Assembly: GCF_000426745.1 (NCBI RefSeq)
Contig: NZ_AUFY01000007.1
Span: 62,001 to 126,000, forward strand
DNA length: 64,000 nucleotides
From: Veillonella montpellierensis DSM 17217
GTDB lineage: Bacteria > Bacillota > Negativicutes > Veillonellales > Veillonellaceae
Direction: 5' to 3'
The notes below the pieces were generated by a model. That model had not been told where the DNA came from, did no database searches, and saw only the letters and a program-made list of their open reading frames with translations. Numbering within the stretch: position 1 is the stretch's first letter; each line of letters opens with the position of its first letter. Shown one piece after another: positions 35,830 through 49,694 of the stretch. The position numbers and the translations under genes were made by a program.

Positions 35830-37264
35830 GCATATGAAAGTACGTAAAAAAACAAAAAAAAGTAAATCTACATGTACAAGCACTGGGACGGCGAATCACT
35901 TGCCAGCTCCAGTGCTTGTTGGCCATACCTATATCGTATCTGTTCATGGCATGGGGACTAGTGGTGAAGGAGTAGGACGCATCGATAACTTTACTATATT
36001 TATACCTTTCGCCTTACCACATGAAGTGGTGGAATGCCAAATTCAAGTGGTGAAAAAGAACTATGCCACGGCAAGGTTGATTCGTGTCATAGAACCTAGT
36101 AAAGAACGAGTAGAGCCTATGTGTGACATATATGGCAACTGTGGGGGCTGTCAATTGCAACATATTTCCTATCATGGCCAATTAGACTTGAAGACACAAA
36201 AAGTAAAGGATATGGTGGAACGTATGGGACATATGTGTCCTGACGTGGTGCAACCTACATTGGGACCTACTAGCCCATGGCATTATCGGAATAAAATGCA
36301 AATGCCTGTAGGCGGTACAATCGATACGATTCGTATGGGATTTTATGCAACGGGATCACACGATATCGTGCAAGGTACATCGTGTCATATTCAAAGAGAA
36401 GAAAATAATCAGATTGCACAGGTTTGCTATGATATTGCATGTCAATTACAGATTGAACCATATAATGAAACTACGGGAACAGGTGTTTTGAGACATATTG
36501 TTGGACGTATTGGTCATGATGCATGGATGATTATATTGGTAACGGCTACTAGTACATTGCCTCAAGCGGATACATGGGTATCGATGATTCGTGAACGATT
36601 GCCAAAAGTTACATCGATTGTACAAAACTATAATCCTAAACGGACAAATGTGATTATGGGGCCCACAAACACCTTATTATATGGCAATGAAACCATTGAG
36701 GATACTATCGATAATTTAACATTTACCTTGTCACCCCATTCGTTCTTTCAAGTGAATCCAGAACAAACACGCGTTCTATACCAAACAGCCTTAGAATTGG
36801 CAGAGTTAACTGGTAATGAAACGGTTATCGATGCGTACTGTGGAACGGGAACGATATCGTTACTATTGGCTAAACAGGCAAAGCGTGTTATTGGTATTGA
36901 AATTGTAGAGCCAGCCATTATTGATGCGAGAGCAAATGCCAAGACCAATGGCTTTTCTAACTGTGAATTTATTGTTGGTGATGCGGCAGACGTAATGCCA
37001 CAACTGTATAAAAAAGGCGTTCGCCCAGATGTGATTGTCTTTGACCCCATTCGGGCAGGCTGTAAAGAACCAGTATTGCTAGCAGCTGTAGCCATGCAGC
37101 CTAGTAGATTGGTATATGTATCCTGTAATCCTGCGTCTATGGTGCGTGATATAGCAATTTTAAAAGAATACGGCTATGTAACAAAACTCATTCAACCAGT
37201 GGATATGTTCCCTATGACGAGTCATGTTGAGTGCGTAAGTTTGTTGACTAAAGTACAGAATTAA
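35822..37264 (+). CDS. TrmA/RlmD family RNA (uracil-5-)-methyltransferase
   Basis: 480 residues. A basic N-terminal tail is followed by a TRAM domain (about 40-95), then the 4Fe-4S cysteines (CDIYGNCGGCQLQH near 101) and a SAM-binding fold with VIDAYCGTGTISLLLA. The uracil-binding FDPIRAGC and catalytic YVSCNPASM motifs are present, as in RlmD. It makes m5U in rRNA (or tRNA) on the 5-carbon. ATG 35822 overlaps the TerC stop; the ATG at 35834 is an alternative. This is the last core gene before the accessory island. Confidence 0.93.
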   Translation: MTKHMKVRKKTKKSKSTCTSTGTANHLPAPVLVGHTYIVSVHGMGTSGEGVGRIDNFTIFIPFALPHEVVECQIQVVKKNYATARLIRVIEPSKERVEPMCDIYGNCGGCQLQHISYHGQLDLKTQKVKDMVERMGHMCPDVVQPTLGPTSPWHYRNKMQMPVGGTIDTIRMGFYATGSHDIVQGTSCHIQREENNQIAQVCYDIACQLQIEPYNETTGTGVLRHIVGRIGHDAWMIILVTATSTLPQADTWVSMIRERLPKVTSIVQNYNPKRTNVIMGPTNTLLYGNETIEDTIDNLTFTLSPHSFFQVNPEQTRVLYQTALELAELTGNETVIDAYCGTGTISLLLAKQAKRVIGIEIVEPAIIDARANAKTNGFSNCEFIVGDAADVMPQLYKKGVRPDVIVFDPIRAGCKEPVLLAAVAMQPSRLVYVSCNPASMVRDIAILKEYGYVTKLIQPVDMFPMTSHVECVSLLTKVQN

Positions 37265-37371
37265 AAGTGTGTAAAAGCTTAGTAAACATAGGTTTTTCGA
37301 AGACTTGATGTGGCCAAAATTTGAGATGGAAAAATGGCCTGAAAACCGTATAAAGTCTGAGGCTTTTTGAA

Positions 37372-37421
37372 GGTTGTATAGATAAAACTGTTGAAGTAGG
37401 TTGTATCGACAAAAATGTTGA
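37372..37421. repeat. Two imperfect 23-base direct repeats at the island edge
   Basis: A 23-base unit starting GGTTGTAT and ending TGTTGA occurs at 37372-37394 and 37399-37421 (period 27) with three mismatches. The copies lie about 110 bases after the last core gene. A GTAGGTT/AACCTAC inverted pair overlaps the second copy and sequence near 37460. They could be recombinase or transposase binding sites. Confidence 0.5.
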
Positions 37422-37516
37422 GATACTTTTTAGACGATATTTAAGTGGAAAAATAACCTACTTAACATATAAATATAAGTGCAAAACATAGTAGACTATT
37501 TTAGAGGTAAACGATT

Positions 37517-37627
37517 ATGCCAGGCGAGGTAAGAGCGATGCCTGCTCATAAAATAGGAAAGCTTTGGAAATTTAAGAGGTCTGAGCTGGAAGAGTGGGTA
37601 AAGAGTGGAGATAGCGCTTTGAAATGA
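37517..37627 (+). pseudogene. Truncated excisionase-type HTH protein
   Basis: The 36-residue frame ends with MPAHKIGKLWKFKRSELEEW then VKSGDSALK, which is the C-terminal half of the HTH_17/excisionase-family DNA-binding proteins. The N-terminal half (helix one and the recognition helix) is missing, and an in-frame stop lies at 37508-37510. Its stop overlaps the start of the glycosylase gene (ATGA), so it was probably the first, regulatory gene of the operon and may still couple translation. Confidence 0.7.
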
Positions 37628-38274
37628 ATAAAGCACATAAAATCACTTTGGTCGCGGACAGCAAAGCGATAGTATATCTAAAGACAAAAGATAGAAGAAT
37701 TGCATGGCTGATAGATAAAATTGGATATATCGAATGTTCTTACCATGACAATCAGTACGATTTTGTAATAGAAGAAATAATTGGACAGATGCTTTCAAAC
37801 AAAGTTGCAGCAATTATTACTAAAAGACTAATTGGTTTATGCAACGGTGATGTAACTCCAAATCACGTAAAGGCATTGAGTTATGAGCAATTGCGTTTAA
37901 TTGGTTTGTCTAATTCAAAGACCAACTATATTCAAATATTTACTGATGCAGTCTTAAATTGTGACATTAATTTGGCAGAATTAGACTCCTACGATGATCA
38001 AGAAGTGATACAAAGGCTAACAGCTATCAGAGGCATTGGTCCATGGACTGCCAAGATGTATCTGTTGTTTGATCTTCAGCGATTAGACATTTTACCGACA
38101 GAGGATGCTGCATTCTTACAAGCATACAAATGGCTGTATGATTTAGATGAAATATCAAAGCAAGATTTGTCCCCAAAATGTTCTATATGGAGCCCTTACT
38201 CATCTATAGCTGCAAGGTATTTATATAGAGCGTTGGATAGTGGACTTACAAAAATTGAAAGATATGAGGAATAA
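37624..38274 (+). CDS. AlkA-like DNA glycosylase (HhH-GPD family)
   Basis: 216 residues. The helix-hairpin-helix LTAIRGIGPWTAKMYLL lies at about 132-148, and the catalytic Asp is residue 161 in LPTEDAAF, as in AlkA/Ogg HhH-GPD glycosylases. It lacks the N-terminal TBP-like domain of E. coli AlkA and has no C-terminal 4Fe-4S cysteines as in EndoIII/MutY. It is the first complete gene of an operon with a cytosine methyltransferase (2 bases away) and McrBC-like genes, so it probably repairs damage linked to methylation, such as 3-methylcytosine or deaminated 5-methylcytosine; that role is inference. Confidence 0.85.
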   Translation: MNKAHKITLVADSKAIVYLKTKDRRIAWLIDKIGYIECSYHDNQYDFVIEEIIGQMLSNKVAAIITKRLIGLCNGDVTPNHVKALSYEQLRLIGLSNSKTNYIQIFTDAVLNCDINLAELDSYDDQEVIQRLTAIRGIGPWTAKMYLLFDLQRLDILPTEDAAFLQAYKWLYDLDEISKQDLSPKCSIWSPYSSIAARYLYRALDSGLTKIERYEE

Positions 38275-38276
38275 TT

Positions 38277-39419
38277 ATGTTAAAACATTTGTCGTTATTT
38301 GCCGGGTGTGGTGGTATTGATTTGGGATTTCAATGGGCTGGATTTGAGACAGTAGCAGGTGTGGAAATCAAGCAGTTTGCTTGTGATACGTTAAAGATGA
38401 ATCATCCCAATATTAAAGTTTTCGGCCCACCTGATTGTGATGGTGATGTCAGAAAGTTTTCCCTTGAAACGTTAAAGGAAATGCTTGGGGATACTGAAAT
38501 TGATATTATCAGTGGAGGCCCCCCTTGTCAGCCTTTTAGCGTGGCGGCTTCTCAACGTTTTTTTAAAGATGACGAGAGGTATAAAAGAAAAGGAGACCTG
38601 GATAGTGAGAAAGGAAATCTGCTGCCTGAATATATCAGGCTCATTAATGAAATTCGTCCAAAGGTATTTGTGATTGAAAATGTTGCAGCACTGATTTCCT
38701 GGAATGATGGCAAATTCCTTTCTGAATCACTAAAAGCCTTGAATCCAGATTATGTATATTCAACTCCATGTGCTGTTCATGCACATGTTTTTGGAGTTCC
38801 ACAGTACAGAGAGAGAATGATAGTAATTGGTACTCGTATTAAAGGGAAAATTCCAATGTTTAATGATGAGACAGTAAAGATGGATAGAATTTTTACCGTG
38901 GATGATGCATTAGCAGATTTTCCGAGCAATCCTCTTAACCATCAGCTTAGGAAACATACTCCTGAATCAATCGCGAGATATGACAAGTTGAAATATGGTG
39001 AGCGGGATTATAAAGGAAGAGTTGACCGCTTAGACCCTCATCGGCCAGCAAAAACAGTAATTGCTGGTGGTGAAAATGGTGGAGGAAGATCACATCTACA
39101 CCCTTATCTACCGCGGACAACTTCTCCGAGAGAATGCGCTCGATTTCAGACATTTCCTGATGATTTTGAATTATGCGGCACAATGTCAAGACAGTTTACA
39201 CAAGTAGGAAATGCGGTTCCCCCGTTGTTGGCATATTTTATTGCCTCTTATGTGAAGTCGTACATTTTGGATATGGATGTTGATTTTGACGCAGATCTCA
39301 GAAAAGTTCAGCATCCAGTTGTGAAAGAAGTTCCAAAGCATATTGTAAAGTTTAATGCAATTGGAGGGAACAAAGAACCTAAGCAATTAACATTGATGGA
39401 TTATATGGGAGAAGTGTAA
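38277..39419 (+). CDS. DNA (cytosine-5-)-methyltransferase of a restriction-type operon
   Basis: 380 residues. Motif I is LFAGCGGIDLGFQWAGF (7-23), motif IV is SGGPPCQPFSVAAS with catalytic Cys84, motif VI is VFVIENV, motif VIII is QYRERMIVIG, and motif X is QVGNAVPP. The target-recognition region between VIII and IX is short. It would methylate a specific DNA sequence to 5-methylcytosine and so protect host DNA from the partner nuclease. It lies between the glycosylase and an unrecognised protein with no gaps, supporting one operon. The recognition sequence cannot be read from the protein. Confidence 0.95.
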   Translation: MLKHLSLFAGCGGIDLGFQWAGFETVAGVEIKQFACDTLKMNHPNIKVFGPPDCDGDVRKFSLETLKEMLGDTEIDIISGGPPCQPFSVAASQRFFKDDERYKRKGDLDSEKGNLLPEYIRLINEIRPKVFVIENVAALISWNDGKFLSESLKALNPDYVYSTPCAVHAHVFGVPQYRERMIVIGTRIKGKIPMFNDETVKMDRIFTVDDALADFPSNPLNHQLRKHTPESIARYDKLKYGERDYKGRVDRLDPHRPAKTVIAGGENGGGRSHLHPYLPRTTSPRECARFQTFPDDFELCGTMSRQFTQVGNAVPPLLAYFIASYVKSYILDMDVDFDADLRKVQHPVVKEVPKHIVKFNAIGGNKEPKQLTLMDYMGEV

Positions 39420-40283
39420 ATGATAGAATGGCAATTTGAACACTTCAAGACTTTTACTCCCTATGAAATAATTCAGCAAGCCGCGGCCTCTCTTTTGTTA
39501 TTTGAGGGCGAGAATACAGACGGTGCGAATTCTAAAATGAGCCGTCTTACAGATGAGCTTACGTTGAATACTGGACATCCGGCATGGATGCCAGATCGAG
39601 AGAGTGGAAATCTTGATATTAACAACGAAGGGTCTGTTTTTAGAAACAAGGCAAGACTGTTTAGTGCTTTTTATATTTGCGTTCCGCCAGACTTGCTTAA
39701 AACTGAAGGTTATGGAAAACAAATCATGATGACAGGATTTGGAAGAGCTTTAGCCGAAGGCAGAGTTAGTGAACAAGAATTCTATAAATATATTATTAAG
39801 ACATTTGCTTATCCGCATCTTGCGTATTCTGATTGTGAAGCCTGGGTGGAATCTGGACGTCGAATTAGACCGCTGTTGTTGATAATAAAAGCGTTAGTGA
39901 CTTTGTTTGAAAAGAAAGGAAGAGACGCTTCATATATAACCGCAGCAGAGATTTACTCTTTTCTGCAACCTCTTCCTACAGAGGATTGTAGTGAGGCAGT
40001 GGACAAAATTATTGATGCTCGAGAGGTTGGAAATGGCTCCGCGTTTAGTTCGGATAAGGTAAGAAAAATCAATGAGATGTTAGCTTTCTTAGCTATAGCA
40101 GGATATGTGTATATAGATTCAACAGAAAGAAATGAGGATAAATACTGGTTGAATCTAATAATGAAACATCCAAAAGAAAAGACTTTTTTTTACCTTCAGA
40201 GATCAGCTGGCGGGGCAGGAACTGGAACAAGTAAAGAAAAAGTTAATATTGTTGACATATATAAAAGTTTATGGGAGGAGTAA
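39420..40283 (+). CDS. Unrecognised protein, possible specificity subunit
   Basis: 287 residues, not confidently recognised. It is soluble and mixed alpha/beta, starting MIEWQFEHFKTFTPYEIIQQ. The central part (about 75-160) has SVFRNKARLFSAFYIC, a GYGKQIMMTGFGRALAEG stretch and a helical segment ending in PLLLIIKALVTLF. This layout recalls the N-terminal DNA-contact regions of some type II enzymes, but no nuclease motif is seen. The ATG directly abuts the methyltransferase stop (TAAATG), and a McrB-like gene follows after two bases. A site-recognition partner for the McrB/McrC pair is the most economical guess. Confidence 0.7.
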   Translation: MIEWQFEHFKTFTPYEIIQQAAASLLLFEGENTDGANSKMSRLTDELTLNTGHPAWMPDRESGNLDINNEGSVFRNKARLFSAFYICVPPDLLKTEGYGKQIMMTGFGRALAEGRVSEQEFYKYIIKTFAYPHLAYSDCEAWVESGRRIRPLLLIIKALVTLFEKKGRDASYITAAEIYSFLQPLPTEDCSEAVDKIIDAREVGNGSAFSSDKVRKINEMLAFLAIAGYVYIDSTERNEDKYWLNLIMKHPKEKTFFYLQRSAGGAGTGTSKEKVNIVDIYKSLWEE

Positions 40284-40285
40284 TA

Positions 40286-41266
40286 ATGCCAAATAAAGTA
40301 GAGCAATTTTTACAACAGGCAGAGTTTAGTGCCGTAAGCATAGAAAATAAAATTGAAAATACAGATATCAATCAGTTGGTAGATGTGGTTCTAGGTAGAA
40401 GTGATTGTATCTTGTTTGGACCTCCTGGAACAAGTAAAACTTTCATGATTGATTCTCTGGCTGATAGATTAGGAAACAATCTTGGTCTGTTTAAAATAAT
40501 CCAGTTTCACACAGGTTATTCTTATGAAGAATTTATCGAAGGTATAGTTCCGGATGTAGATAAAGGTGGCTTTAAATATGAAAGTGGTGTATTTTTAAAT
40601 TTTTGTATTGAGGCGGCAAAGAATGAGTATAAGGATAAGATTTGTTTATTTGTAATTGATGAAATAAATAGAGCAAATGTAACTGCTGTTTTTGGTGAAA
40701 TAATGTATCTCATGGAAAACAAGGGTAGGCGTTCTTTGAAAACATCAAAACAAAAAATAGATTTTATAATTCCTCAAAATGTTGTGATTGTAGGTACTAT
40801 GAACACAGCGGACAAAACATTGGCTAAGTTAGATTTTGCATTTAGAAGACGTTTTAGATTCTTGGCAGTATATCCGTCTGATACAGTGCTACATACTATA
40901 GTTTCTAAGGCGTCTTTTGCACCTGAACTTGACTTGACAATCGAGGAGTATGTGGATTGTTTTAATATTTTGAATGCAAAAATTACAAGGCATCCGCTGT
41001 TAGGTAAAAATCTTACGTTGGGGCATGTGTTATGGATTCGCAAGAATGACATGATTACTCCATATACAAAAGAAGACATTGGAAGAATATTTACTGAGAC
41101 TATTTTTCCTCAAATTGAGAGTTATTGCGGATTTAATAAAGAGGTATTAGGTGCTTTGCTTGGACCAAAACTCAGGGACAAAATTATGTATGGATATTCT
41201 ATTAACTGTGATGAAGTTATAGAATTCTTATCTGGGTTAAAGAATAGCAAGGCGGTGAATGCATAG
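40286..41266 (+). CDS. McrB-type AAA+ NTPase
   Basis: 326 residues, nearly only the AAA+ module. Walker A is GPPGTSKT (45-52), Walker B is LFVIDEINRANV, and the McrB-specific MNTADKTLAKLDFAFRRRF carries the guanine-binding NTAD motif and the sensor/Arg finger region. McrB proteins form GTP-driven hexamers that translocate DNA and activate McrC. E. coli McrB has an N-terminal methyl-DNA-binding domain; here only about 40 residues precede Walker A, so recognition must come from elsewhere. The start is chosen from GGAGGAG at 40274-40280. Confidence 0.93.
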   Translation: MPNKVEQFLQQAEFSAVSIENKIENTDINQLVDVVLGRSDCILFGPPGTSKTFMIDSLADRLGNNLGLFKIIQFHTGYSYEEFIEGIVPDVDKGGFKYESGVFLNFCIEAAKNEYKDKICLFVIDEINRANVTAVFGEIMYLMENKGRRSLKTSKQKIDFIIPQNVVIVGTMNTADKTLAKLDFAFRRRFRFLAVYPSDTVLHTIVSKASFAPELDLTIEEYVDCFNILNAKITRHPLLGKNLTLGHVLWIRKNDMITPYTKEDIGRIFTETIFPQIESYCGFNKEVLGALLGPKLRDKIMYGYSINCDEVIEFLSGLKNSKAVNA

Positions 41267-42567
41267 TGTTACTAAATATAAAACAATGGGAAAGTAAGTA
41301 TCTTCGTGATTTTGATGCTGTAAAAAATGGCGAGATGTCGGAAGAAATATTATATCGAATTGTTACTGCAATGTATTTTGACTACGTCAGTACAAATGGA
41401 ATAGAACCTTTTACTATTTCATATGGAAGAGGAAAAGGCTTTTGCATGAATGCCAATTCCCACGTGGGTGTAATTGTTTATGACGAAGTAACGTTATTTA
41501 TTAATTCAATGATTCCAGAGTTGACACTTGGCAAGATTTTGTATCTTCAATCGCAAGCAGAGGACGTCTCATCTGCAGCAGACACGAAAAAGGTTATTGT
41601 CGATAATTTGAACGATGAAGAGAACATCGCTGCTGTAGATTACTTTGTTGTTTCATTACTTCAAGCAACAGAGGAGATTTATGCGAATGGTTTGTTAACG
41701 GAGATTGACTGTAACAATACTATTAGTCAGAGAATAACTGGAAGACTAAATATTCAGAAACAGGTCGATAAGAATCCGGCTTATGATTCATTTCATGTTC
41801 AAAAATCAGAATCCGTAAAGAATATTCTAATTAACCAGGTGATTAAAAAGGCACTTCTGTTTTCAGCTGAATTGACCCAATTAGAATGGATTCGACCACT
41901 TTTGTTATGTGCCGCTGATTATTTCGAAGATGTGGAAATAATCGATGAAGTGGTAAAAGACGAATTTCCAAATGTAAGTGATGCCACAGCGTTGTCAAGA
42001 GATGACTATGAGAAAGCATTACGTTTTTCAAAATTCATCCTTTTGGGCTATGACCCTTTAGCTGGAAGCGGGGCGTCAAATTTCCCAGAGTTTCTTCTAG
42101 ATATGAATGAAGTGTTTGAATTCTATGTTAACGTAGGTCTAAAACGAATCTATAAAGATGGATTTGAAAAAAAGAAGACTTTTACATTAGGGGTTGGTCC
42201 TGTAGACATTCCGATTGATAAGAAAAATATAGAACTGGATGGCTATTATGATAAAGACTCCCATCGAGTTGTTATTGATACAAAGAATAAGTACCGAAAT
42301 GTATTAGATAGGGATGTGCCAGATTTTATTGCTGCAAATCCAGATATCTATCAGCAGTATTATTATGCGTCTCGTGTAAATGCAAATAGCATTGTTCTCG
42401 TATATCCAGCAAGTAGAAAGAGAACGGCACCAATCGGCCAATATCAATTAAATTTTGCCGGAAATAAAGATATAAATTTATACTTTTGGGCTTTGCAGAT
42501 AACAGCTACACCAAAAGAAAATAAGAGAGCTTTAATTAATCTTGCTAAGTTTATTGAAGCTCTGTGA
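41266..42567 (+). CDS. McrC-type restriction nuclease subunit
   Basis: 433 residues, McrC family (LlaJI type). A N-terminal region (about 1-130) would bind the McrB hexamer. The C-terminal PD-(D/E)xK nuclease is visible as ELDGYYD with Asp325, then VVIDTKNKY with Asp338 and Lys340, and the downstream QQYYYASR helix. The start is GTG, overlapping the mcrB stop by one base (TAGTG), so the two subunits are made together. It should cut DNA when driven by the McrB motor. It ends the operon; an IS remnant follows. Confidence 0.92.
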   Translation: MLLNIKQWESKYLRDFDAVKNGEMSEEILYRIVTAMYFDYVSTNGIEPFTISYGRGKGFCMNANSHVGVIVYDEVTLFINSMIPELTLGKILYLQSQAEDVSSAADTKKVIVDNLNDEENIAAVDYFVVSLLQATEEIYANGLLTEIDCNNTISQRITGRLNIQKQVDKNPAYDSFHVQKSESVKNILINQVIKKALLFSAELTQLEWIRPLLLCAADYFEDVEIIDEVVKDEFPNVSDATALSRDDYEKALRFSKFILLGYDPLAGSGASNFPEFLLDMNEVFEFYVNVGLKRIYKDGFEKKKTFTLGVGPVDIPIDKKNIELDGYYDKDSHRVVIDTKNKYRNVLDRDVPDFIAANPDIYQQYYYASRVNANSIVLVYPASRKRTAPIGQYQLNFAGNKDINLYFWALQITATPKENKRALINLAKFIEAL

Positions 42568-42638
42568 GGTGGGCTACTCCTATGTCAAGATTTTGTGAAA
42601 ACTAAAATGAGATTCCTTGGATATAAAAAAATGCTTGA

Positions 42639-42800
42639 TTAAGTAATTTTTAACTGTTTTTGTAGCTTCTTTCGGTAGAACTTTTCAAACTCCGCAATGG
42701 ACATATAATTGCAATGGCCTTATATCCTAACGGTGTTGTAAAAAGACTCTATATACTCGAAAATCAGCTTTTTAGCCTAGTTGTAATCATGGATATATAC
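42639..42800 (-). pseudogene. IS3-family transposase C-terminal remnant
   Basis: On the minus strand, the frame reads AKKLIFEYIESFYNTVRI, a stop, then NYMSIAEFEKFYRKKLQKQL and a stop. FEYIESFYN and SxAEFEKF are the end motifs of IS3/IS150-type OrfB integrase domains. Only this end is left, with at least one in-frame stop. No intact inverted repeats were identified, so it marks an old insertion between the McrC gene and the minus-strand cluster. The rest of the 42568-42917 gap holds no gene. Confidence 0.75.
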
Positions 42801-42917
42801 CCACTTATAAATCTGTAAGTAGTGTCAAGTACTTTACAACGAAAACATTGACCACTGTTATATATTTTTTTAAAATTAAAGTCATCAGTGATAGATACAA
42901 TCATAAAACCGTCTCAA

Positions 42918-43121
42918 TTAATCTTTTATAGTTTCCATGATATCTTCTAATTTACAATCCATAGCTTCACAGATTTTAAGTAGAACATCGGTAGTGATAT
43001 TTGCACCCTTACCAAGTTTTGCAATAGATGCTGCACTGATTCCAGCCGCTTCCTTTAAATCGTTTTTATTCATTTCTTTGTCTATTAACATTTTCCATAA
43101 TTTGTTATAGCTGATTCGCAT
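42918..43121 (-). CDS. Small XRE-family HTH regulator (YozG-like)
   Basis: 67 residues, a complete Cro/CI-type HTH: YNKLWKMLIDKEMNKNDLKE, then AGISAASIAKLGKGANITTD and a C-terminal KICEAMDCKLEDIM. This compact form is common as a stand-alone regulator near mobile genes and toxin-antitoxin or defence genes. It lies 14 bases after the end of the ATPase remnant on the same strand, so it may be the last gene of that unit. The target is unknown. Confidence 0.85.
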   Translation of the reverse strand: MRISYNKLWKMLIDKEMNKNDLKEAAGISAASIAKLGKGANITTDVLLKICEAMDCKLEDIMETIKD

Positions 43122-43135
43122 TTTATATTCTCCAA

Positions 43136-43529
43136 TTAATCTGTAACATCCATAAGGAATCCGTATCTGCCTGGTTCAAAACCTTTTGTAAAGGTGATAA
43201 CATTGGCTCCTGTGGATTCAAAGTCTATATCCGGAACATTATTCATATTATCAAGAAGTATTACTTGGCCACAATCTTGATGATTTGTGAAGAAGGTGTA
43301 TAAGGCTGTTCTCATGCTTTCAGGGGACAAATCAGATACACCTTGGTCTAATCCCAGAAGAGGCGTATCTATCACAAGGAATCCGGGGTCGTGGACTGCT
43401 TTTTTTGCAAGATATTGCCTGAAGGTCATTGCTGTAATCTGGTTATTTACATTAATATTATGTCCCTCCTGTTTGTTGGACAGTCGGTGGGGCAGAAGTA
43501 TCGGTTATTAGAGTATCTTTAGTATCCAT
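43136..43529 (-). pseudogene. Internally deleted AAA/SMC-like ATPase gene
   Basis: A start at 43529, with AGGAG upstream, opens a 23-residue frame (MDTKDTLITDTSAPP) that stops at 43458. In another frame, from about 43507 to 43136, runs the tail of an ATPase: LPHRLSNKQEGHN, NQITAMTFRQYLAKKA, then the Walker B-like FLVIDTPLLGLDQG and a final ITFTKGFEPGRYGFL. Such tails belong to ATPases of several hundred residues with an N-terminal Walker A, which is absent here. The simplest reading is an internal deletion that fused the gene start out of frame to its end. Confidence 0.65.
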
Positions 43530-43540
43530 TACGAATGCTC

Positions 43541-44800
43541 CTACAACTTAATGGTTAAAGTTTCGTTATTTGTCATGTTGACATTAGTATTTCCGTTTTG
43601 AATGATATTAGTTTGTTGTTGAATAGTGGTATTTTCAATCTTGGTATCATCTTCAGGAAGAGGATATAAACGTATATATAAGTTGCGCATCTCTGTCCTT
43701 AATCGAATCGTTTCAGGACGAAGCACTTCTCGTAGCTGTTGGCCTTCTTCTGCTGATTCATTTCTAAACCATAGGAAATTTTTGGAATGATGTAAGCGTA
43801 AGAATTTATCAGAAATATAATATGTGTATTCATCGAATACTTTCATAATATCATTTAACAAAGAACGAAGCGTGAAATTACTTATTTCACGAATTTCGTA
43901 TTGCCAATCATGATTAAAAGCAGAAAGTTCATCAGAAAGTGACAGTTTAGTGTATTGCCCAGTAGGATCGGTATCAATACAATATTTTAATAGAGGCTTA
44001 GCCTGTTTTCTGATTTGTTTTAAATATTGGAGGTCTTCTTTATTTAGCTCATCAATATTTAATGTTAGTTTTTTTGTAGATACAGGTTCAGTATAGTTTT
44101 CTATAGTTTCTGCCGATTTACTAGAGTCGCTGCTCATGATTACGTTTATTGGAGAACTTATAGTATTACCAATATTACTAATATATACCCATTGGGATTT
44201 TGTGCTTTTTTGCTCATGCCAAGCTTCAAATGTTGCACGCCCTTTAGTATTATCGGCTCGCTCATTTAAAATGAAATTCAAAACGGAAAGTAATAAGAAA
44301 GGAAGCTCGACCTTTGTAATACTTTGTATGTCCTTTTTCGTTATATTCGTAGTTGCTGAAATCATGAAATTAGTATTATCTTGGATTTCAGTATCATTTT
44401 GCAGCATTTCTAGAATAGCCTTAACTAGCCATTCAGCCTTTTTCTCATTAATAAATTTTTCTATAAACCCTGTTATTCTTTTTAGAAGAACAGGGTCTTT
44501 TTTATTTGTTAGAGTTCTAAAAGAGTTGATAACTAAAGGATCAGTGAATGGAATATAAGTTGTCCCGTAATCCTGGCAAGTTTTGAACATTGTAGTGCAT
44601 TTACTAAAAGTTGAACCTTGTGCATTATCAAAACAATTACCTGTCACTACTTCGACTAACCCCATCATTACATCGGTGTCTTTCAAACCGTCAGATCCAC
44701 CTTTAAGTTTATTTCTAGCTTTTGTTCGTGGTTTTCTTGCTTGAAGGATCAGTGAAAATAGTATTCCTCCGCAAAGATATGGTGTATTTATTGGGGTCAT
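43541..44800 (-). CDS. Hypothetical protein of a multi-component ATPase system
   Basis: 419 residues, not assigned to a named family. The first 25 residues are mildly hydrophobic (TPYLCGGILFSLIL); the middle is helical; the C-terminus is Asn- and Thr-rich, with IIQNGNTNVNMTNNETLTI, a short beta-type tail seen in several Firmicute defence-associated proteins. A good AAGGAGG site lies 6-8 bases before the ATG. It is followed on the same strand by a broken AAA/SMC-like ATPase gene and a small HTH gene; with the ATPase it resembles ABC three-component type gene sets, but this is inference. With the ATPase broken, the system is probably not functional. Confidence 0.65.
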   Translation of the reverse strand: MTPINTPYLCGGILFSLILQARKPRTKARNKLKGGSDGLKDTDVMMGLVEVVTGNCFDNAQGSTFSKCTTMFKTCQDYGTTYIPFTDPLVINSFRTLTNKKDPVLLKRITGFIEKFINEKKAEWLVKAILEMLQNDTEIQDNTNFMISATTNITKKDIQSITKVELPFLLLSVLNFILNERADNTKGRATFEAWHEQKSTKSQWVYISNIGNTISSPINVIMSSDSSKSAETIENYTEPVSTKKLTLNIDELNKEDLQYLKQIRKQAKPLLKYCIDTDPTGQYTKLSLSDELSAFNHDWQYEIREISNFTLRSLLNDIMKVFDEYTYYISDKFLRLHHSKNFLWFRNESAEEGQQLREVLRPETIRLRTEMRNLYIRLYPLPEDDTKIENTTIQQQTNIIQNGNTNVNMTNNETLTIKL

Positions 44801-44823
44801 CTTTACAACCTCCTTAAATTAGT

Positions 44824-44850
44824 AAGCTTAGAAAGCTTAGAAAGCTAAAA
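44824..44850. repeat. Tandem AAGCTTAGA repeats upstream of the 419-residue gene
   Basis: AAGCTTAGA occurs twice in tandem and is followed by AAGCTAAAA. The array lies 24-50 bases before the minus-strand start, between divergent genes, so it could be an operator. The rest of the 266-base divergent gap has no gene. Confidence 0.45.
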
Positions 44851-45066
44851 ACAGCATTTTTACTTGTTGACGGAAACCTTAGCTACTATAGGTTTATAAG
44901 TGAAGATTGAGATAGCGTAGTTCAGTTTTACCGTATTAGTCACTTTAAAATTATTATATCTTAAAAATATGTGTAAATCTACATTCTGCAATATAAACTA
45001 CGTAAATGCGAAGAAATACTCGTGAAAATAATAAAAATCTTCAAAAAGAAAGTGAGGTGGATGGCA

Positions 45067-45207
45067 ATGGCTAAGAACTCAAAGCAAACATCCAAAACAG
45101 TTGTTTCTAAAGCAAGTAAAGTTCTTCGTGATGGACGCTACAGTAAGACATCAAAATCTGTAGCAGGAAGTGCGTTAGCACAGACAAGAGCAAGCAGACG
45201 TAAGTAA
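45067..45207 (+). CDS. Small basic conserved hypothetical protein
   Basis: 46 residues beginning MAKNSKQTSKTVVSKASKVL, rich in Lys, Ser and Arg. Proteins with this repeated SK-A-SKVL and SVAGSALAQT pattern are widespread on phages and plasmids; their role is unknown, with nucleic-acid binding plausible from charge. GAGGTGG at 45054-45060 supports the ATG at 45067 over the upstream starts at 45022 and 45061. It marks the left end of the phage-like segment. Confidence 0.7.
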   Translation: MAKNSKQTSKTVVSKASKVLRDGRYSKTSKSVAGSALAQTRASRRK

Positions 45208-45370
45208 GTATGGTAATTATCGTGGCCAGTGACAGATTTGATAATCAGCCTGTCCACTTCCCGTTAGGGAAAATATTAAATAATAAATATCGCCAAGGCC
45301 TGATTAGCTATAAGGGCATTGGGATACAGATATCGGTACCATCTATAGAAAATCTATGGATGAGTACGGA

Positions 45371-45447
45371 TAGAAGTACCCTTAGTTCCTTATGTCTAAT
45401 TTAGGCGTCTTAGACTTTTTAGGTCGGTACTTCTATAGGTACCGGCC
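45371..45447 (+). promoter_or_regulatory. Candidate transcription attenuator before the phage genes
   Basis: GGTCGGTAC (45422-45430) pairs with GTACCGGCC (45439-45447) to make a terminator stem followed by TTTATTTGTTT. TAGAAGTACC at 45371-45380 is perfectly complementary to GGTACTTCTA at 45426-45435, which overlaps the terminator's 5' arm, so the two folds exclude each other. A second small hairpin, GTCTAA (45394-45399) with TTAGAC (45410-45415) plus a T run, lies between. The arrangement is that of an anti-terminator/terminator switch. Confidence 0.6.
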
Positions 45448-45502
45448 TTTATTTGTTTCCTATGCCCCTCTGCAAGAACCAGGCAGAAAGGGTAGGAACA
45501 CT

Positions 45503-46018
45503 ATGAAGATTAAGATGCGTTACGAGAATGCATACCAGACCATTGAAGTTGAAACAACGGAGCTTGAAGAATGGTTGAACATCTCTATCTCAGAAGATGA
45601 AAGTGAAGAGGATTACGAAAAGAGAATCCAAGAAGAAATTGAAGTTCAATTCAATAGACCCGACTACAACAGTTGGCATAAGTTTGACCGTCATAGAGGG
45701 AATAGTAATGCACAACTTAATGATGATGCTGATAGCTTGGATGTTTCTGAACCTTTGATGGATGAAGTTATTGATTCTAGGATTTTTTGCAAAGAATCTA
45801 TTGAGCGTGAAAATCAGTGGGAGTATGAATCTGTTTGTAAAAAAATTCGTGAAGTCTTAAAGCCTGATATAGCAGATATGGTTATTGCTATTGTACTTGA
45901 CGGACAAACTGTGGGTGAATATGCAGCCTCTATCAAGGATAGTGCTAATAATGTCAGTCATCGATATAGACGTGCTCTCAATACATTAAAAAAAGTTTTT
46001 TCAAAAACGTCCTTTTGA
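45503..46018 (+). CDS. Phage sigma-factor-like regulatory protein
   Basis: 171 residues from the ATG at 45503, preceded by TAGGAA; upstream in-frame starts cross the attenuator hairpin and are rejected. The N-terminus (MKIKMRYENAYQTIEVETTE, then EEWLNISI) is acidic, and the last 60 residues form a sigma region-4-like HTH (ADMVIAIVLDGQTVGEYAAS then VSHRYRRALNTLKK). Such proteins are frequent first genes in Clostridia-type prophage replication modules and in conjugative elements. It may direct polymerase to phage promoters. Confidence 0.75.
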   Translation: MKIKMRYENAYQTIEVETTELEEWLNISISEDESEEDYEKRIQEEIEVQFNRPDYNSWHKFDRHRGNSNAQLNDDADSLDVSEPLMDEVIDSRIFCKESIERENQWEYESVCKKIREVLKPDIADMVIAIVLDGQTVGEYAASIKDSANNVSHRYRRALNTLKKVFSKTSF

Positions 46019-46092
46019 CCCTTTTCCCAAGGCTACTAAGTAGGAGGGAAAAGACCCTCCAATCATTTGATTTGATTAAGGAGGTAATTCGA

Positions 46093-46860
46093 ATGGAATT
46101 ACAAGTATTTAACAATGCTGAGTTTGGCTCTGTAAGAACCGCAACGGTAAATGGTGAGGTTATGTTTGTCGGTAAGGATGTGGCAGCTATCCTCGGGTAC
46201 CAAAACGGTAGTCGAGATATTAACCGTCATGTTGCAGTAGAGAATCGACTCAAGACCATGATTTTTGATGGTAATCAGAATAAGGACACAACTCTTATTA
46301 ACGAATCGGGACTTTACAGTCTTATCCTGTCCAGTAAGATGCCGAATGCTAGAAAGTTTAAGCACTGGGTAACGGCAGAAGTTCTTCCGTCTATCCGCAA
46401 GCATGGTATGTATGCTATTGATGAGATTTTGGAAAATCCAGACTTTGCCATCGCGGCTTTTACCCGGCTTAAGGAAGAACGGGAGAAACGAAAACAGTTT
46501 GAATGCTTAAGTTTAGCTCAGCAACAACAAATAGCGGAAATGCAACCAAAAGCAAGTTACTATGATTTGATTTTGCAGAATACGAATACTGTACCGATTA
46601 CACAAATTGCAAAAGATTATGGAATGAGCGGTCAAAGATTCAATGCGTTACTTCATGCTCTCGGTGTTCAGTATAAGTTTAGAAAGACCTGGCTTTTATA
46701 TCAGCATTATGCAACGTGTGGCTATACGCAGTCCAGAACCTATGCTATCGATGAGAACAGAAGTGTGATGCATACCTATTGGACGCAAAAGGGTAGATTG
46801 TTCCTATATGACCTTCTTAAGAGTGAAAATATTTATCCGCTAATCGAACGGGAGGACTAG
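46093..46860 (+). CDS. Phage antirepressor (BRO-N and KilA C-terminal domain)
   Basis: 255 residues from the ATG at 46093 (AAGGAGG at 46079-46085; the upstream frame to 46015 is not supported). A BRO-N domain spans about 1-105 (FVGKDVAAILGYQNGSRDIN, SGLYSLILSSKMPNARKFKH and VLPSIRKHGMY). A KilAC-type DNA-binding domain follows from about 155 (ITQIAKDYGMSGQRFNALLH). Antirepressors counter the phage repressor on induction. It stands at the head of the replication genes. Confidence 0.92.
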   Translation: MELQVFNNAEFGSVRTATVNGEVMFVGKDVAAILGYQNGSRDINRHVAVENRLKTMIFDGNQNKDTTLINESGLYSLILSSKMPNARKFKHWVTAEVLPSIRKHGMYAIDEILENPDFAIAAFTRLKEEREKRKQFECLSLAQQQQIAEMQPKASYYDLILQNTNTVPITQIAKDYGMSGQRFNALLHALGVQYKFRKTWLLYQHYATCGYTQSRTYAIDENRSVMHTYWTQKGRLFLYDLLKSENIYPLIERED

Positions 46861-46865
46861 GCTAT

Positions 46866-47306
46866 ATGAGCATTGATAAGTTTAACTCTGAGGGTTATTA
46901 CGACCCGACCACCTATGAGGCACTTACCAATATTTATCGTGAGGAAACGGTAGCTGATAAAAAGGCTGCCTACCTTCCCTTGGTATATGTATGTAGCCCC
47001 TATGCAGGTGACGTGGAAAACAATGTAGCTAATGCTAAGAAATATAGTCGTTTTACAATGGATAGTCATGCCATTCCTGTAACGCCACATCTTTTGTACC
47101 CACAATTTATGGATGATGCCAATGACTCAGAACGAGAACTAGCCATGCACTTTAACTATGTACTTCTTGGTAAATGTACAGAGCTTTGGGTCTTTGGTGG
47201 TATTGTAAGCCGGGGTATGGCTCATGAGATTGGTCTTGCCAGGAAGCGGAGAATGAAGACCAGATGGTTTGACCATGCCATGACGGAGGTAGAGGCATAT
47301 GCTTGA
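46866..47306 (+). CDS. DUF4406-like nucleotide-binding fold protein
   Basis: 146 residues. From residue 37, PLVYVCSPYAGDVENNVANA, then PHLLYPQFMDDANDSERELA and CTELWVFGGIVSRGMAHEI match the nucleoside 2-deoxyribosyltransferase-like fold of DUF4406/DUF7768 phage proteins. The catalytic state is unknown; a role in phage nucleotide metabolism is possible. It overlaps the start of the primase gene by eight bases. Confidence 0.8.
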   Translation: MSIDKFNSEGYYDPTTYEALTNIYREETVADKKAAYLPLVYVCSPYAGDVENNVANAKKYSRFTMDSHAIPVTPHLLYPQFMDDANDSERELAMHFNYVLLGKCTELWVFGGIVSRGMAHEIGLARKRRMKTRWFDHAMTEVEAYA

Positions 47307-49554
47307 TTTTACACTTTATACAGCAGACTGTACCGGTAACAGTGGGAATTGTCTGTATCCTAATAAGATGTGTATTACAGATAAAGACTCTTTTAGCAAG
47401 GCTACGAAAATGGATCATGTGACGGCCAAGTATAAAGGTTACTACCGCAGTAAAGACAATTTTGAAGAGTCGGATTGTATTCCCTTTGATTGTGATAATG
47501 ACCATTCGGAGAACCCGGAAGAATGGCTGACGCCTTTTGATATCGCATTATCGATTCCGGAAGTCGCCTTTGCAGCCTCCTATAGCAGACATCATAACTT
47601 GGCGAAGGGAGATAAAGTCGCAAGACCTAGGTTTCATGTATTCTTCCCTATTTCAAAGGTGACTGATGAAGAAACGTATGCAGCCTTGAAACGAAAGGTT
47701 GCCCAGGTTTTTCCGTATTACGATACCAACGCTTTAGATTCCGCCAGGTTTCTCTATGGCAATGATTCTAACAATGTAGAAATCTATGAAGGCAACAAGA
47801 CAATTATTGAATATCTGGAAGAAGATGAGTTTGCAGATTTTGATGCGGCTACAGAAGAAATCAAAGAAGGCAGCCGTAACAGTACCATGAGCCATATTGC
47901 AGGGAGAATTATTAAGCGGTTTGGCAATACAGCTGAGGCTTATCAGTTGTTTCTTAAAAAAGCTGAACATTGTAATCCGCCATTGCCGGATAGTGAACTT
48001 CAAGTTATCTGGCGCAGTGCATCCAAGTTCGGTGATAAGGTCAGCTTGCAGGAAGGATATATTCCGCCCGAACGGTACAATTCCGGATGCAGGTTAAAGC
48101 CCGAAGATTTTTCTGATGTAGGGCAGGCACTGGTTTTGGCTAATGAATATAAAGATATTCTTCGCTATTCTCCGTCCACGGACTATATGGTCTATAACGG
48201 GAGCTTTTGGGAAGAATCGAAACCGAAGGCACAAGGTGTTTCACAAAATTTGACGGAACGACAGCTGCAAGAGGCTGAAACCGAAATGCAGAAAGCCATG
48301 GAGGAGATGGTTAAGAATGGCGGTATGGAGATTTTAGTGTCGGTCGGTGCGAAAAAGGCGGCTCAAATGATGAGTAAACCGCAGGTTCATGCCTATGACA
48401 TGTATGAAGATGCGGTAGCGTATAAGAAGTATGCCATCAAGCGAAGGGATTCCAAGAATATCGCAGCTACCTTAAAAGAGGCACGGCCGATGCTGGAAGT
48501 AGAGCAACGTACTCTGGATGCCGATGAGTTTCTGTTAAATACACCCACTTATACCTATGACCTTCGCCGGGGCATCCATGCTCCCCTGGAACATAAGCCG
48601 GAGCATTTTATTACGAAACAGACAACGGTTGATCCGTCAGAGGTTGGGGCTGATATCTGGAAGGCGGCACTGGATACATTCTTCTTAGGTGATGAAGATC
48701 TCATCGAGTATGTGCAGAAAATGGTCGGATTATCCGCTATCGGTAAAGTCTATGTGGAAGCCCTTATTATTGCCTACGGAGAAGGACGAAACGGTAAGTC
48801 GACTTTCTGGAACGTGATAGCCAGAGTCCTAGGTACCTATTCGGGAAACATCTCCGCCGATATGCTGACCGTAGGATGCCGGAGAAATGTCAAACCGGAA
48901 CTGGCAGAGGCTAAGGGAAAACGGATGCTGATTGCGGCGGAACTTGAAGAAGGTATGCGTCTTAATACCGCCAATGTAAAACAGCTTTGTTCGACTGATG
49001 AAATCTATGCCGAGAAGAAGTATAAAGATCCTTTCTCCTATACGCCGACTCATACACTGGTACTGTATACAAATCATCTGCCAAAGGTAGGCGCCATTGA
49101 CAAAGGGACATGGCGAAGACTTATCGTTATTCCTTTCGATGCCAAGATAGAAGGCAGTGCGGATATTAAGAATTATGCGGATTATCTGTTTGAGCAGGCA
49201 GGTGGGGTCATTCTTGCCTGGGTCATTGAGGGAGCAAGAAAGGTGATTACGGACAACTACAGAATAGAACCGCCACAGAAGGTGCATGATGCCATTGAGC
49301 ATTATAAGGAAAATAATGACTGGCTTTCAAATTTTATAGCTGAGCGTTGCGAAGTAGATGCAAAATATTTTGAGAAATCCGGTGACGTATATAACGAGTA
49401 TCGTATTTTCTGTAATCAGATGGGTGAGTATGCAAGAAGTACATCCGATTTTTATACCGCCTTGGAAGTAGCTGGTTATGACAGGTTTCGAGACAGAAAA
49501 GGCAGATACATCAAGGGGTTAAAATTGAAAGCTGACTTTATAGAAGAAACGTAA
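47299..49554 (+). CDS. Phage/plasmid primase-helicase (P4 family)
   Basis: 751 residues. The N-terminal part (about 1-200) holds a primase-like region with YKGYYRSKDNFEESDCIPFD, a middle PriCT/D5_N region follows, and the C-terminal superfamily 3 helicase has Walker A GEGRNGKSTF (about 494-503), then LAEAKGKRMLIAAELEEG and LYTNHLPKVGAIDKGTWRRL. This is the complete gp55/D5-type replication protein that primes and unwinds phage DNA. It is GC-richer than flanking core genes. Confidence 0.92.
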   Translation: MLDFTLYTADCTGNSGNCLYPNKMCITDKDSFSKATKMDHVTAKYKGYYRSKDNFEESDCIPFDCDNDHSENPEEWLTPFDIALSIPEVAFAASYSRHHNLAKGDKVARPRFHVFFPISKVTDEETYAALKRKVAQVFPYYDTNALDSARFLYGNDSNNVEIYEGNKTIIEYLEEDEFADFDAATEEIKEGSRNSTMSHIAGRIIKRFGNTAEAYQLFLKKAEHCNPPLPDSELQVIWRSASKFGDKVSLQEGYIPPERYNSGCRLKPEDFSDVGQALVLANEYKDILRYSPSTDYMVYNGSFWEESKPKAQGVSQNLTERQLQEAETEMQKAMEEMVKNGGMEILVSVGAKKAAQMMSKPQVHAYDMYEDAVAYKKYAIKRRDSKNIAATLKEARPMLEVEQRTLDADEFLLNTPTYTYDLRRGIHAPLEHKPEHFITKQTTVDPSEVGADIWKAALDTFFLGDEDLIEYVQKMVGLSAIGKVYVEALIIAYGEGRNGKSTFWNVIARVLGTYSGNISADMLTVGCRRNVKPELAEAKGKRMLIAAELEEGMRLNTANVKQLCSTDEIYAEKKYKDPFSYTPTHTLVLYTNHLPKVGAIDKGTWRRLIVIPFDAKIEGSADIKNYADYLFEQAGGVILAWVIEGARKVITDNYRIEPPQKVHDAIEHYKENNDWLSNFIAERCEVDAKYFEKSGDVYNEYRIFCNQMGEYARSTSDFYTALEVAGYDRFRDRKGRYIKGLKLKADFIEET

Positions 49555-49694
49555 TAACTATAGGTGTGTCACTTTATGACAGCTATTTACTATCCTTTTC
49601 TATAGAGCTAAAAAATAAGTCTATATATAAGTATAGGAAATGACAGTCGTAGGGTGGCACCACCCTTAATAAATTACTGATGGAGGTGGCACGA

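What the first reader, a model, noticed from the sequence alone, without database searches (positions are those of the whole stretch)
37624..42567. Five-gene operon linking a DNA glycosylase, a cytosine methyltransferase and a McrBC-type nuclease
Seen: an AlkA-like HhH-GPD protein, a C5-methyltransferase, an unrecognised protein, a McrB-type AAA+ with NTAD motif and a McrC-type PD-(D/E)xK nuclease are packed with gaps of at most two bases or one-base overlaps. Known: LlaJI-type systems pair C5-methyltransferases with McrB/McrC-like restriction subunits, and Mig.MthI is a mismatch glycosylase encoded beside a cytosine methyltransferase; C5-methyltransferases can also create 3-methylcytosine. 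Inference: this is a restriction system that cuts unmethylated DNA and carries its own repair enzyme for methylation-linked damage. I know of no description of this exact gene set.
Basis: partly seen in the sequence, partly recalled or inferred. Interest (0 to 1): 0.8.

Follow-up and report, generated by a model that had tools for sequence, protein, structure and literature searches.

The report
Restriction system with companion DNA glycosylase
A bacterial operon joins a four-gene DNA restriction-modification system to a DNA-repair-type glycosylase whose closest relatives, most of them found in viral sequences, also sit beside restriction-modification genes, which points to a little-noticed companion enzyme of these defence systems.

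Summary
They split into two parts. (1) A four-gene core: C5-methyltransferase, a rare 287-aa protein (P3), short McrB, McrC. It recurs without the glycosylase in a Clostridiaceae and a Chloroheliaceae genome. The layout is that of the three-ORF LlaI/BsuMI cassettes rather than LlaJI. P3 weakly resembles the DNA-recognition domain of BpuJI and is probably the site-recognition subunit. (2) The AlkA-like glycosylase. Distant homologs are ordinary (1 of 40 near a C5-methyltransferase), but it belongs to a tight clade of 17 distinct proteins. All 15 with enough DNA lie within 4.7 kb of DNA-methyltransferase genes: 12 C5, 3 N6/N4 type. Their restriction enzymes differ (SacI, Eco47II, HaeII, LlaJI, P3-McrBC, others). 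Twice nearly the same glycosylase sits beside a different system. The link to R-M is therefore unlikely to be accidental, but it is to R-M in general. Most likely the enzyme repairs base damage made by methyltransferases; no AlkB hit was found in 28 genomes of the host's family. An anti-phage role, suggested by its usual place before the restriction gene, or hitch-hiking in a hotspot, remains open. No activity was tested.

The parts
37517..37627 (+). 36-codon ORF, probable remnant (N-terminal half missing) of an HTH_17-type regulator, overlapping the glycosylase start by 4 bases
   Evidence: Read; [quoted passage not shown] The remnant itself was not scanned.
37624..38274 (+). AlkA-like HhH-GPD DNA glycosylase of the R-M-associated clade; predicted catalytic Asp161
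   Evidence: Pfam HhH-GPD 4.5e-9; best solved relative 2h56 1.2e-27, and 2yg8 (drAlkA2) 3.1e-21; D161 invariant in 10 of 10 aligned clade members; clade of 17 with support 100/99
38277..39419 (+). C5-cytosine DNA methyltransferase
   Evidence: DNA_methylase 5.8e-58; 690.8 bits to the homolog in L039
39420..40283 (+). P3, 287 aa, probable sequence-recognition subunit (A subunit) of the restriction cassette
   Evidence: 72% and 37% identical to proteins in the same place in L039 and L040; no Pfam match; model of low confidence whose better part aligns best with the BpuJI recognition domain, Z 8.4-9.1, then Nt.BspD6I, Z 7.3
40286..41266 (+). McrB-type AAA+ GTPase, 326 aa, too short to carry the usual N-terminal DNA-binding domain
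   Evidence: E. coli McrB GTPase 4.2e-55 by profile, matched from residue 23; AAA_5 3.8e-18
41266..42567 (+). McrC-type PD-(D/E)xK nuclease
   Evidence: McrBC PF10117 1.6e-25; solved McrC 6ut5_G 2.4e-7 by profile

Best explanation
This is a mobile Type II-like restriction-modification system plus a companion repair enzyme. Step 1 (inferred): the C5-MTase marks one site type, probably symmetric because there is only one MTase. Step 2 (inferred): P3 recognises the unmethylated site and takes the place of the DNA-binding N-terminus that other McrB proteins carry. Step 3 (inferred from homology): P3 loads the McrB GTPase ring, which with McrC translocates and cuts. Step 4 (inferred): the glycosylase belongs to a clade that travels with R-M cassettes and excises bases damaged by methyltransferase misfiring (for example N3-methylcytosine, N1-methyladenine), which hosts without AlkB, or without oxygen, cannot reverse by oxidative demethylation. 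Shown by sequence: gene order, recurrence of the four-gene core, the clade and its linkage to R-M genes. Not shown: any activity, and the oxygen relations of the window's host.
For: Core recurs in order MT-P3-McrB-McrC in L039 and as P3-McrB-McrC with a convergent MT in L040. LlaI and BsuMI have three-ORF restriction cassettes with short B subunits of 337 and 343 aa (PMC1459862, section 5 read). P3 model: first four structural matches are BpuJI recognition-domain chains (Z 8.4-9.1; two rows 112 residues at 2.8 A), then Nt.BspD6I (Z 7.3); the partner gene of the top-listed plasmid MTase (Tolypothrix, 41.5%) has a weak BpuJI_N hit, E 0.014. Glycosylase clade: 17 rows, one clade, 100/99, in a tree of 63; 15 of 15 evaluable members have a DNA MTase within 4.7 kb against 1 of 40 distant chromosomal homologs in the DNA fetched, up to about 7 kb on each side (Fisher 1.3e-12, not corrected for relatedness or for viral versus chromosomal context). 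Repair context: OGG-like second glycosylase on the MTase strand in L195 and L196, Vsr beside the glycosylase in L201. AlkB family PF13532: 0 of 28 family genomes, while 3 of 14 control genomes ring. drAlkA2, a homolog, is reported to process 1-methyladenine and 3-methylcytosine (PMC5128194, passages). DNA MTases are reported to inflict methylation damage, citing Rosic 2018 (sentence and citation seen in PMC10957082; the paper itself is not held).
Against: In 12 of 17 clade loci the glycosylase directly precedes the known or presumed REase on the same strand, and in 10 of the 11 of these where the MTase is seen it is convergent; a repair role tied to the MTase does not predict this. 3 of 15 loci have N6/N4-type MTases only. 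19 of 22 family genomes with C5-MTases show no such glycosylase. 0 of 87 other McrB loci had it by phmmer, many of them short. A review states that m1A and m3C do not appear to be removed by glycosylases (PMC11431407, passage), against the drAlkA2 report. P3's model has mean pLDDT 49.7; a second model with the L040 protein first failed (37.8). P3 shows no sequence match to BpuJI or to any PDB chain at E below 0.07. AlkB absence rests on a tool that, given PF00730, did not list the window's own HhH-GPD gene.
Confidence: 0.5

Rival explanations
1. The glycosylase is part of the attack: it excises bases (modified or alkylated) from phage DNA that escape the REase, so the cassette is a two-layer defence.
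For: It is directly upstream of and co-directional with the known or presumed REase in 12 of 17 clade loci, with gaps of 2-22 bases in 10 of the 12 (82 in L194, 162 in L192). Antiviral glycosylases exist: Brig1 excises alpha-glucosyl-hmC (PMC11078745, passages).
Against: Brig1's best structural matches are uracil glycosylases, not HhH-GPD. The nearest solved relatives of this protein are named 3-methyladenine glycosylases, and repair genes (Vsr in L201, OGG-like in L195 and L196) occupy the same cassettes.
Confidence: 0.22
2. The glycosylase is hotspot cargo: a gene that flanks a place where R-M cassettes are exchanged, with no functional tie to them.
For: L185 and L186 share a 98.2% identical glycosylase and neighbouring recombinases but carry different R-M genes; L203 and L204 are 91.4% identical with N6/N4 MTases versus a LlaJI-like set.
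Against: The linkage holds in several settings (beside recombinases in L185/L186, in phage records L187 and L188, in the island here), with gaps of a few bases to the R-M genes; in the window and in L201 the glycosylase lies inside the R-M gene run.
Confidence: 0.18
3. The nuclease is a modification-dependent (Type IV McrBC) enzyme and the MTase is a neighbour that only protects against another system.
For: McrB and McrC are homologs of McrBC subunits.
Against: A MTase is kept with P3-McrB-McrC in three distant genomes; a MTase beside a 5mC-cutting enzyme would be harmful unless their sites differ (general knowledge); the short McrB has no room for a methyl-DNA-binding N-terminus.
Confidence: 0.07

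Closest known systems
LlaI and BsuMI (three-ORF McrBC-like Type II systems)
   Same: MTase with a three-gene restriction cassette that holds a short McrB-like protein (337 and 343 aa; here 326) (PMC1459862 section 5); McrC-like partner here.
   Different: One C5-MTase here; homology of P3 to the third ORFs of LlaI/BsuMI could not be tested; a glycosylase leads the operon.
LlaJI
   Same: C5-MTase with McrB/McrC-like restriction subunits acting on unmethylated sites (reported for LlaJI, passages of PMC1459862).
   Different: LlaJI has two MTases and a long R1 with its own DNA-binding half; here one MTase and a separate P3. McrC here matches PF10117 and not RE_LlaJI PF09563. A LlaJI-type set beside the same glycosylase clade is in L204.
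BpuJI recognition domain / Nt.BspD6I
   Same: Best structural matches of the better-predicted part of P3.
   Different: P3 is too short for a fused nuclease and has no detectable sequence match; the model is poor.
drAlkA2 and other AlkA-type glycosylases
   Same: HhH-GPD by sequence, catalytic Asp aligned.
   Different: Clade on a long stem (1.2 changes per column), mobile, R-M-linked.
Mig.MthI and Vsr
   Same: Repair enzymes encoded beside cytosine MTases (Mig.MthI recalled; Vsr beside this clade in L201).
   Different: Mig.MthI is a MutY-related T:G glycosylase (recalled; abstract start in the listing); the window protein's 13 PDB matches are named 3-methyladenine or 8-oxoguanine glycosylases.
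Brig1
   Same: Prokaryotic DNA glycosylase found in defence loci.
   Different: Uracil-glycosylase-like structure and stand-alone activity (passages).

Membership tests
AlkA-type HhH-GPD glycosylase | HhH-GPD domain with catalytic Asp | tested here: met
   Pfam over cut-off; D161 aligned with the Asp of 2h56 and invariant in 10 of 10 clade rows
AlkA-type HhH-GPD glycosylase | excises alkylated bases | not testable with these tools
   needs purified protein
LlaI/BsuMI-type three-ORF McrBC-like system | MTase plus three-ORF restriction cassette with a short McrB-like subunit | tested here: met
   against the description in PMC1459862
LlaI/BsuMI-type three-ORF McrBC-like system | third subunit homologous to that of LlaI or BsuMI | not tested
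LlaI/BsuMI-type three-ORF McrBC-like system | restricts unmethylated DNA | not testable with these tools
   needs phage or plasmid assays
LlaJI | two C5-MTases | tested here: not met
   one MTase in the operon
LlaJI | DNA-binding domain fused to the McrB-like subunit | tested here: not met
   326-aa McrB whose profile match to the McrB GTPase starts at residue 23
Type IV McrBC | no cognate MTase | tested here: not met
   MTase kept with the core in window, L039 and L040; that it is cognate is inferred
BpuJI-type recognition domain (for P3) | same fold | tested here: inconclusive
   top rows, but Z about 9 on a model of mean pLDDT 49.7
BpuJI-type recognition domain (for P3) | sequence similarity (BpuJI_N, PDB chains) | tested here: not met
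   no match
Brig1 | uracil-glycosylase-like structure | tested here: not met
   HhH-GPD instead by sequence; Brig1 description from passages

The most novel reading that the evidence does not exclude
Phages and prophages carry a dedicated class of oxygen-independent base-excision enzymes as a standing accessory of Type II restriction-modification cassettes, found with at least seven kinds of restriction enzyme, whose job in anaerobic or AlkB-less hosts is to erase off-target N1/N3 methylation made by the cassettes' own methyltransferases: a third kind of R-M accessory beside controller proteins and Vsr.
Probability: 0.3. Interest if true: 0.8.

Novelty: new variant of a known kind. Interest (0 to 1): 0.62.

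Why it matters
DNA methyltransferases are reported to damage DNA as a by-product, but how hosts without AlkB deal with this is open. A glycosylase clade that keeps company with many different R-M systems offers a directly testable answer, or else a new antiviral glycosylase. The P3 protein is a candidate free-standing recognition subunit of an McrBC-type motor nuclease.

Tried and rejected
Accidental adjacency: suggested at first by 1 of 40 distant homologs near a C5-MTase and by the glycosylase-free core in L039/L040, then judged unlikely for the close clade. Linkage to C5-MTases only: rejected by L199, L200 and L203. Vsr-like T:G repair as the only role: less likely, since L201 carries Vsr as well. 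P3 by sequence: no Pfam, PADLOC (best E 0.021), NCBIfam or convincing PDB match, no match in plasmids or phages; viral contigs gave only the identical contig and nothing with the L040 protein; 28 family genomes only its own; 398 same-phylum genomes one broken chance-like hit besides its own; a profile over 249 genomes six short weak hits, E 2.8e-4 to 0.049, taken as chance. P3 against the Tolypothrix partner by hhalign: probability 0.2%. Promoters in 37200-42900: 21 found, 21.3 expected. Repeats bounding the island in 36900-45500: only three short imperfect pairs. Clade members in 398 same-phylum genomes by profile: best match 190 bits; the places are of the distant kind. Recognition site of the MTase: not found.

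Counts and dropped rows: L193 (copy of L185) and L202 (copy of L203) were left out of the 17; L188 and L198 are cut before an MTase position and left out of the 15. L192 has a glycosylase ORF that ends early (189 aa) and was kept. Of the 65 other genomes with a match, 40 neighbourhoods were fetched; they are the matches at E 3.9e-18 or better except three (G295, G090, G129). 26 of the 40 have the full 15 kb, the rest are cut by contig ends or shorter; none of the 26 has a C5-MTase. Of four plasmid homologs, also outside the clade, one (L037, Aeromonas) lies beside a D12-type MTase and a gene annotated as a SacI-family REase, so loose R-M links exist outside the clade too. Of 154 neighbour proteins 149 were scanned and 25 of 183 families shown; among them Uma2 (putative restriction endonuclease) in 2 and Ada_Zn_binding in 2. 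The clade was looked for mainly in viral collections, so 'mostly viral' partly reflects where I searched.

Folding: the second structure job was too poor to search with.
Full report
OBSERVATION. The five ORFs lie at the stated places with gaps of 2, 0, 2 and -1 bases. Pfam names four of them: HhH-GPD 4.5e-9, DNA_methylase 5.8e-58, AAA_5 3.8e-18, McrBC 1.6e-25; the 287-aa protein P3 has no match. McrB matches the E. coli McrB GTPase domain at 4.2e-55 by a three-row profile and McrC a solved McrC at 2.4e-7. The window is part of a 1.87-Mb genome. No call establishes the species; genus Veillonella is a guess.

THE CORE. A scan of genome contigs with McrB kept the 80 best of 375 relatives. In the DNA held, only two carry P3: L039, a Clostridiaceae MAG (McrB 72% identical), in the order HTH_17-MT-P3-McrB-McrC, and L040, a Chloroheliaceae MAG (39%), with P3-McrB-McrC and a convergent MT. 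Neither has the glycosylase. Of 87 McrB loci other than the window's own contig (80, 7), 0 gave a glycosylase hit; many of these loci are short. P3 is thus part of the system and the glycosylase is not fixed to it. The published LlaJI study notes that LlaI and BsuMI, unlike LlaJI, have short B subunits (337 and 343 aa) in three-ORF restriction cassettes (PMC1459862, section 5 read); the window has that layout.

P3. AlphaFold on three sequences gave mean pLDDT 49.7, with ten-residue blocks of 54-88 from residue 151 to 250. Foldseek found nothing at E 0.001 or better. VIA-align ranked four BpuJI recognition-domain chains first (Z 8.4-9.1; two rows 112 residues, 2.8 A, 22% identity), then Nt.BspD6I (Z 7.3), then general winged-helix proteins at Z 7.1 and below. 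The tool warns that Z under 8 may mean only a common arrangement, and 9 is only a little above that. A hint from elsewhere: the top-listed plasmid relative of the MTase (Tolypothrix, 41.5%) is followed by a protein with a weak BpuJI_N match, E 0.014; that protein and P3 do not align significantly. I infer that P3 is a winged-helix recognition subunit that replaces the N-terminal DNA-binding domain of other McrB proteins. A model with the L040 protein first failed (37.8).

THE GLYCOSYLASE: FIRST IMPRESSION. Of 299 same-phylum genomes 66, its own included, have a match. I fetched 40 neighbourhoods, 26 of them with the full 15 kb: 1 of 40 has a C5-MTase in the DNA fetched (L131, about 4 kb away), and a wider set of MTase queries again found only that one. 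Their neighbours look mostly ordinary (149 of 154 scanned, 25 of 183 families shown; Uma2 in 2, Ada_Zn_binding in 2). This looked like an accidental neighbour.

THE GLYCOSYLASE: CLOSE RELATIVES. Within the bacterial family 3 of 28 genomes have it: the window's own, G026 and G001, the latter two at 48% identity, and all three have a C5-MTase beside it. In L185 (G026) and L186 (G001) the glycosylases are 98.2% identical and lie between lysis-type phage genes (by eye) and the same recombinases, yet the R-M genes differ: SacI-type (PF09566 1.5e-128) versus a 238-aa REase (PADLOC REase_II 8.5e-37). Phage and IMG/VR searches added L187, L188, L191-L198 and L199-L204. Partners: SacI in L185, L191, L192, L195; Eco47II in L194 (1.2e-77); HaeII with Vsr in L201 (8.2e-143 and 4.8e-21); RE_LlaJI (6.5e-48), an McrB-like protein and two C5-MTases in L204; a split REase_II in L187; proteins without a family match in the REase place in L188, L196, L197 and L199, and one with only a chance-level match in L200; N6/N4-type MTases in L199, L200, L203.

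LINKAGE. Seventeen distinct members form one clade (100/99, stem 1.2) in a tree of 63 (the first 12 gave 100/100). Two are cut at the record end. All 15 others have a DNA-MTase gene within 4.7 kb: 12 C5, 3 N6/N4. Against 1 of 40 this gives Fisher p 1.3e-12, but the two sets differ in origin (mostly viral versus chromosomal) and rows are related, so the number is only a guide. No unbiased control of random phage genes was run; L189 and L190, from phage records but outside the clade, show no MTase. One of four plasmid homologs outside the clade, L037, does lie beside an R-M pair. A second swap, L203 versus L204 (91.4% identical glycosylases, unrelated R-M genes), repeats the L185/L186 pattern.

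ORIENTATION. In 12 of 17 loci (L185, L186, L187, L188, L191, L192, L194-L197, L199, L200) the glycosylase directly precedes the known or presumed REase on the same strand; in 10 of the 11 of these where the MTase is seen it is convergent (L194 is the exception). In L203 and L204 the glycosylase is itself convergent with the R-M genes. In the window it precedes the MTase; in L201 it lies between REase and Vsr. This favours co-expression with the restriction arm and speaks for the attack rival.

FUNCTION. For repair: AlkA-type sequence with the catalytic Asp; drAlkA2, a homolog, is reported to take 1-methyladenine and 3-methylcytosine (PMC5128194, passages); DNA MTases are reported to inflict methylation damage (PMC10957082, passage citing Rosic 2018); no AlkB family hit in 28 family genomes; other repair genes share the cassettes, namely Vsr in L201 and an OGG_N/HhH-GPD protein in L195 and L196, with a matching piece at the end of L188 and a weak one in L191. 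Against: 19 of 22 family genomes with C5-MTases show no such glycosylase; N6/N4 systems have it too; a review says m1A and m3C are apparently not removed by glycosylases (PMC11431407, passage). N6/N4 systems would fit if the lesion class were N1/N3 methylation in general (my inference). That the hosts are anaerobes is my reading of the named ones (Terrisporobacter, Christensenellales); hosts of the IMG/VR contigs are not known to me.

NOVELTY. The listings of searches of the held open-access library showed no paper that by title or abstract start describes this gene set or an R-M-linked AlkA-like clade; subscription papers and REBASE were not searched. The McrBC census (PMC11090510) notes MTase-associated McrB GTPases, and the word glycosylase does not occur in its main text (passages). 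Brig1 is a different structure.

SITE. In 8 of 8 genus relatives compared, homology stops at the end of the rRNA methyltransferase gene (window 37218-37231) and other genes follow, so the operon sits in a variable spot beside a prophage-like region. An identical IMG/VR viral contig begins exactly at the MTase.

Noticed in passing
window 43136-43429 (-) and 43541-44800 (-): C-terminal fragment of Lamassu LmuB (1.7e-36) and a 419-aa ORF with a weak HamA match (3.7e-5): a decayed defence system beside the operon.
   Followed up: no
window about 54164-54727 (+): Second C5-MTase match of the genome, in pieces, inside the prophage-like region (G000:C6:116164-116727).
   Followed up: no
window 45300-49651: Prophage-like stretch of about 4.2 kb 76% identical to Ruminococcus phages NatCom.
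   Followed up: no
L201 4813-8080: Cassette on a viral contig with C5-MTase, HaeII-type REase, glycosylase and Vsr in a row: two different repair genes in one R-M cassette.
   Followed up: partly
L195 8762-9574 (-), L196 10306-11133 (-), L188 8830-9111 (-), L191 8745-9098 (-): An OGG_N/HhH-GPD glycosylase beside the MTase of the same R-M cassettes (L195, L196); L188 ends in a matching piece and L191 has a weak one: a second base-excision enzyme.
   Followed up: partly
L171 3600-7125: McrB/McrC-like pair embedded between BREX genes on a Runella plasmid.
   Followed up: no
L062 and L084, about 4.4-10.3 kb: Short McrB preceded by a 255-257-aa protein not detectably related to P3 (weak HVO_A0261_N match in L062) and, in L062, a D12-type MTase: another M-A-B-C layout.
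   Followed up: no
L205-L212 after the rRNA methyltransferase gene: The same chromosomal spot holds other gene sets in 8 relatives, some looking by eye like Type III R-M or nucleotidyltransferase defence genes.
   Followed up: no
The genome search by PF00730 listed two HhH-GPD genes but not the window's own, so absences from that tool are soft.
   Followed up: no
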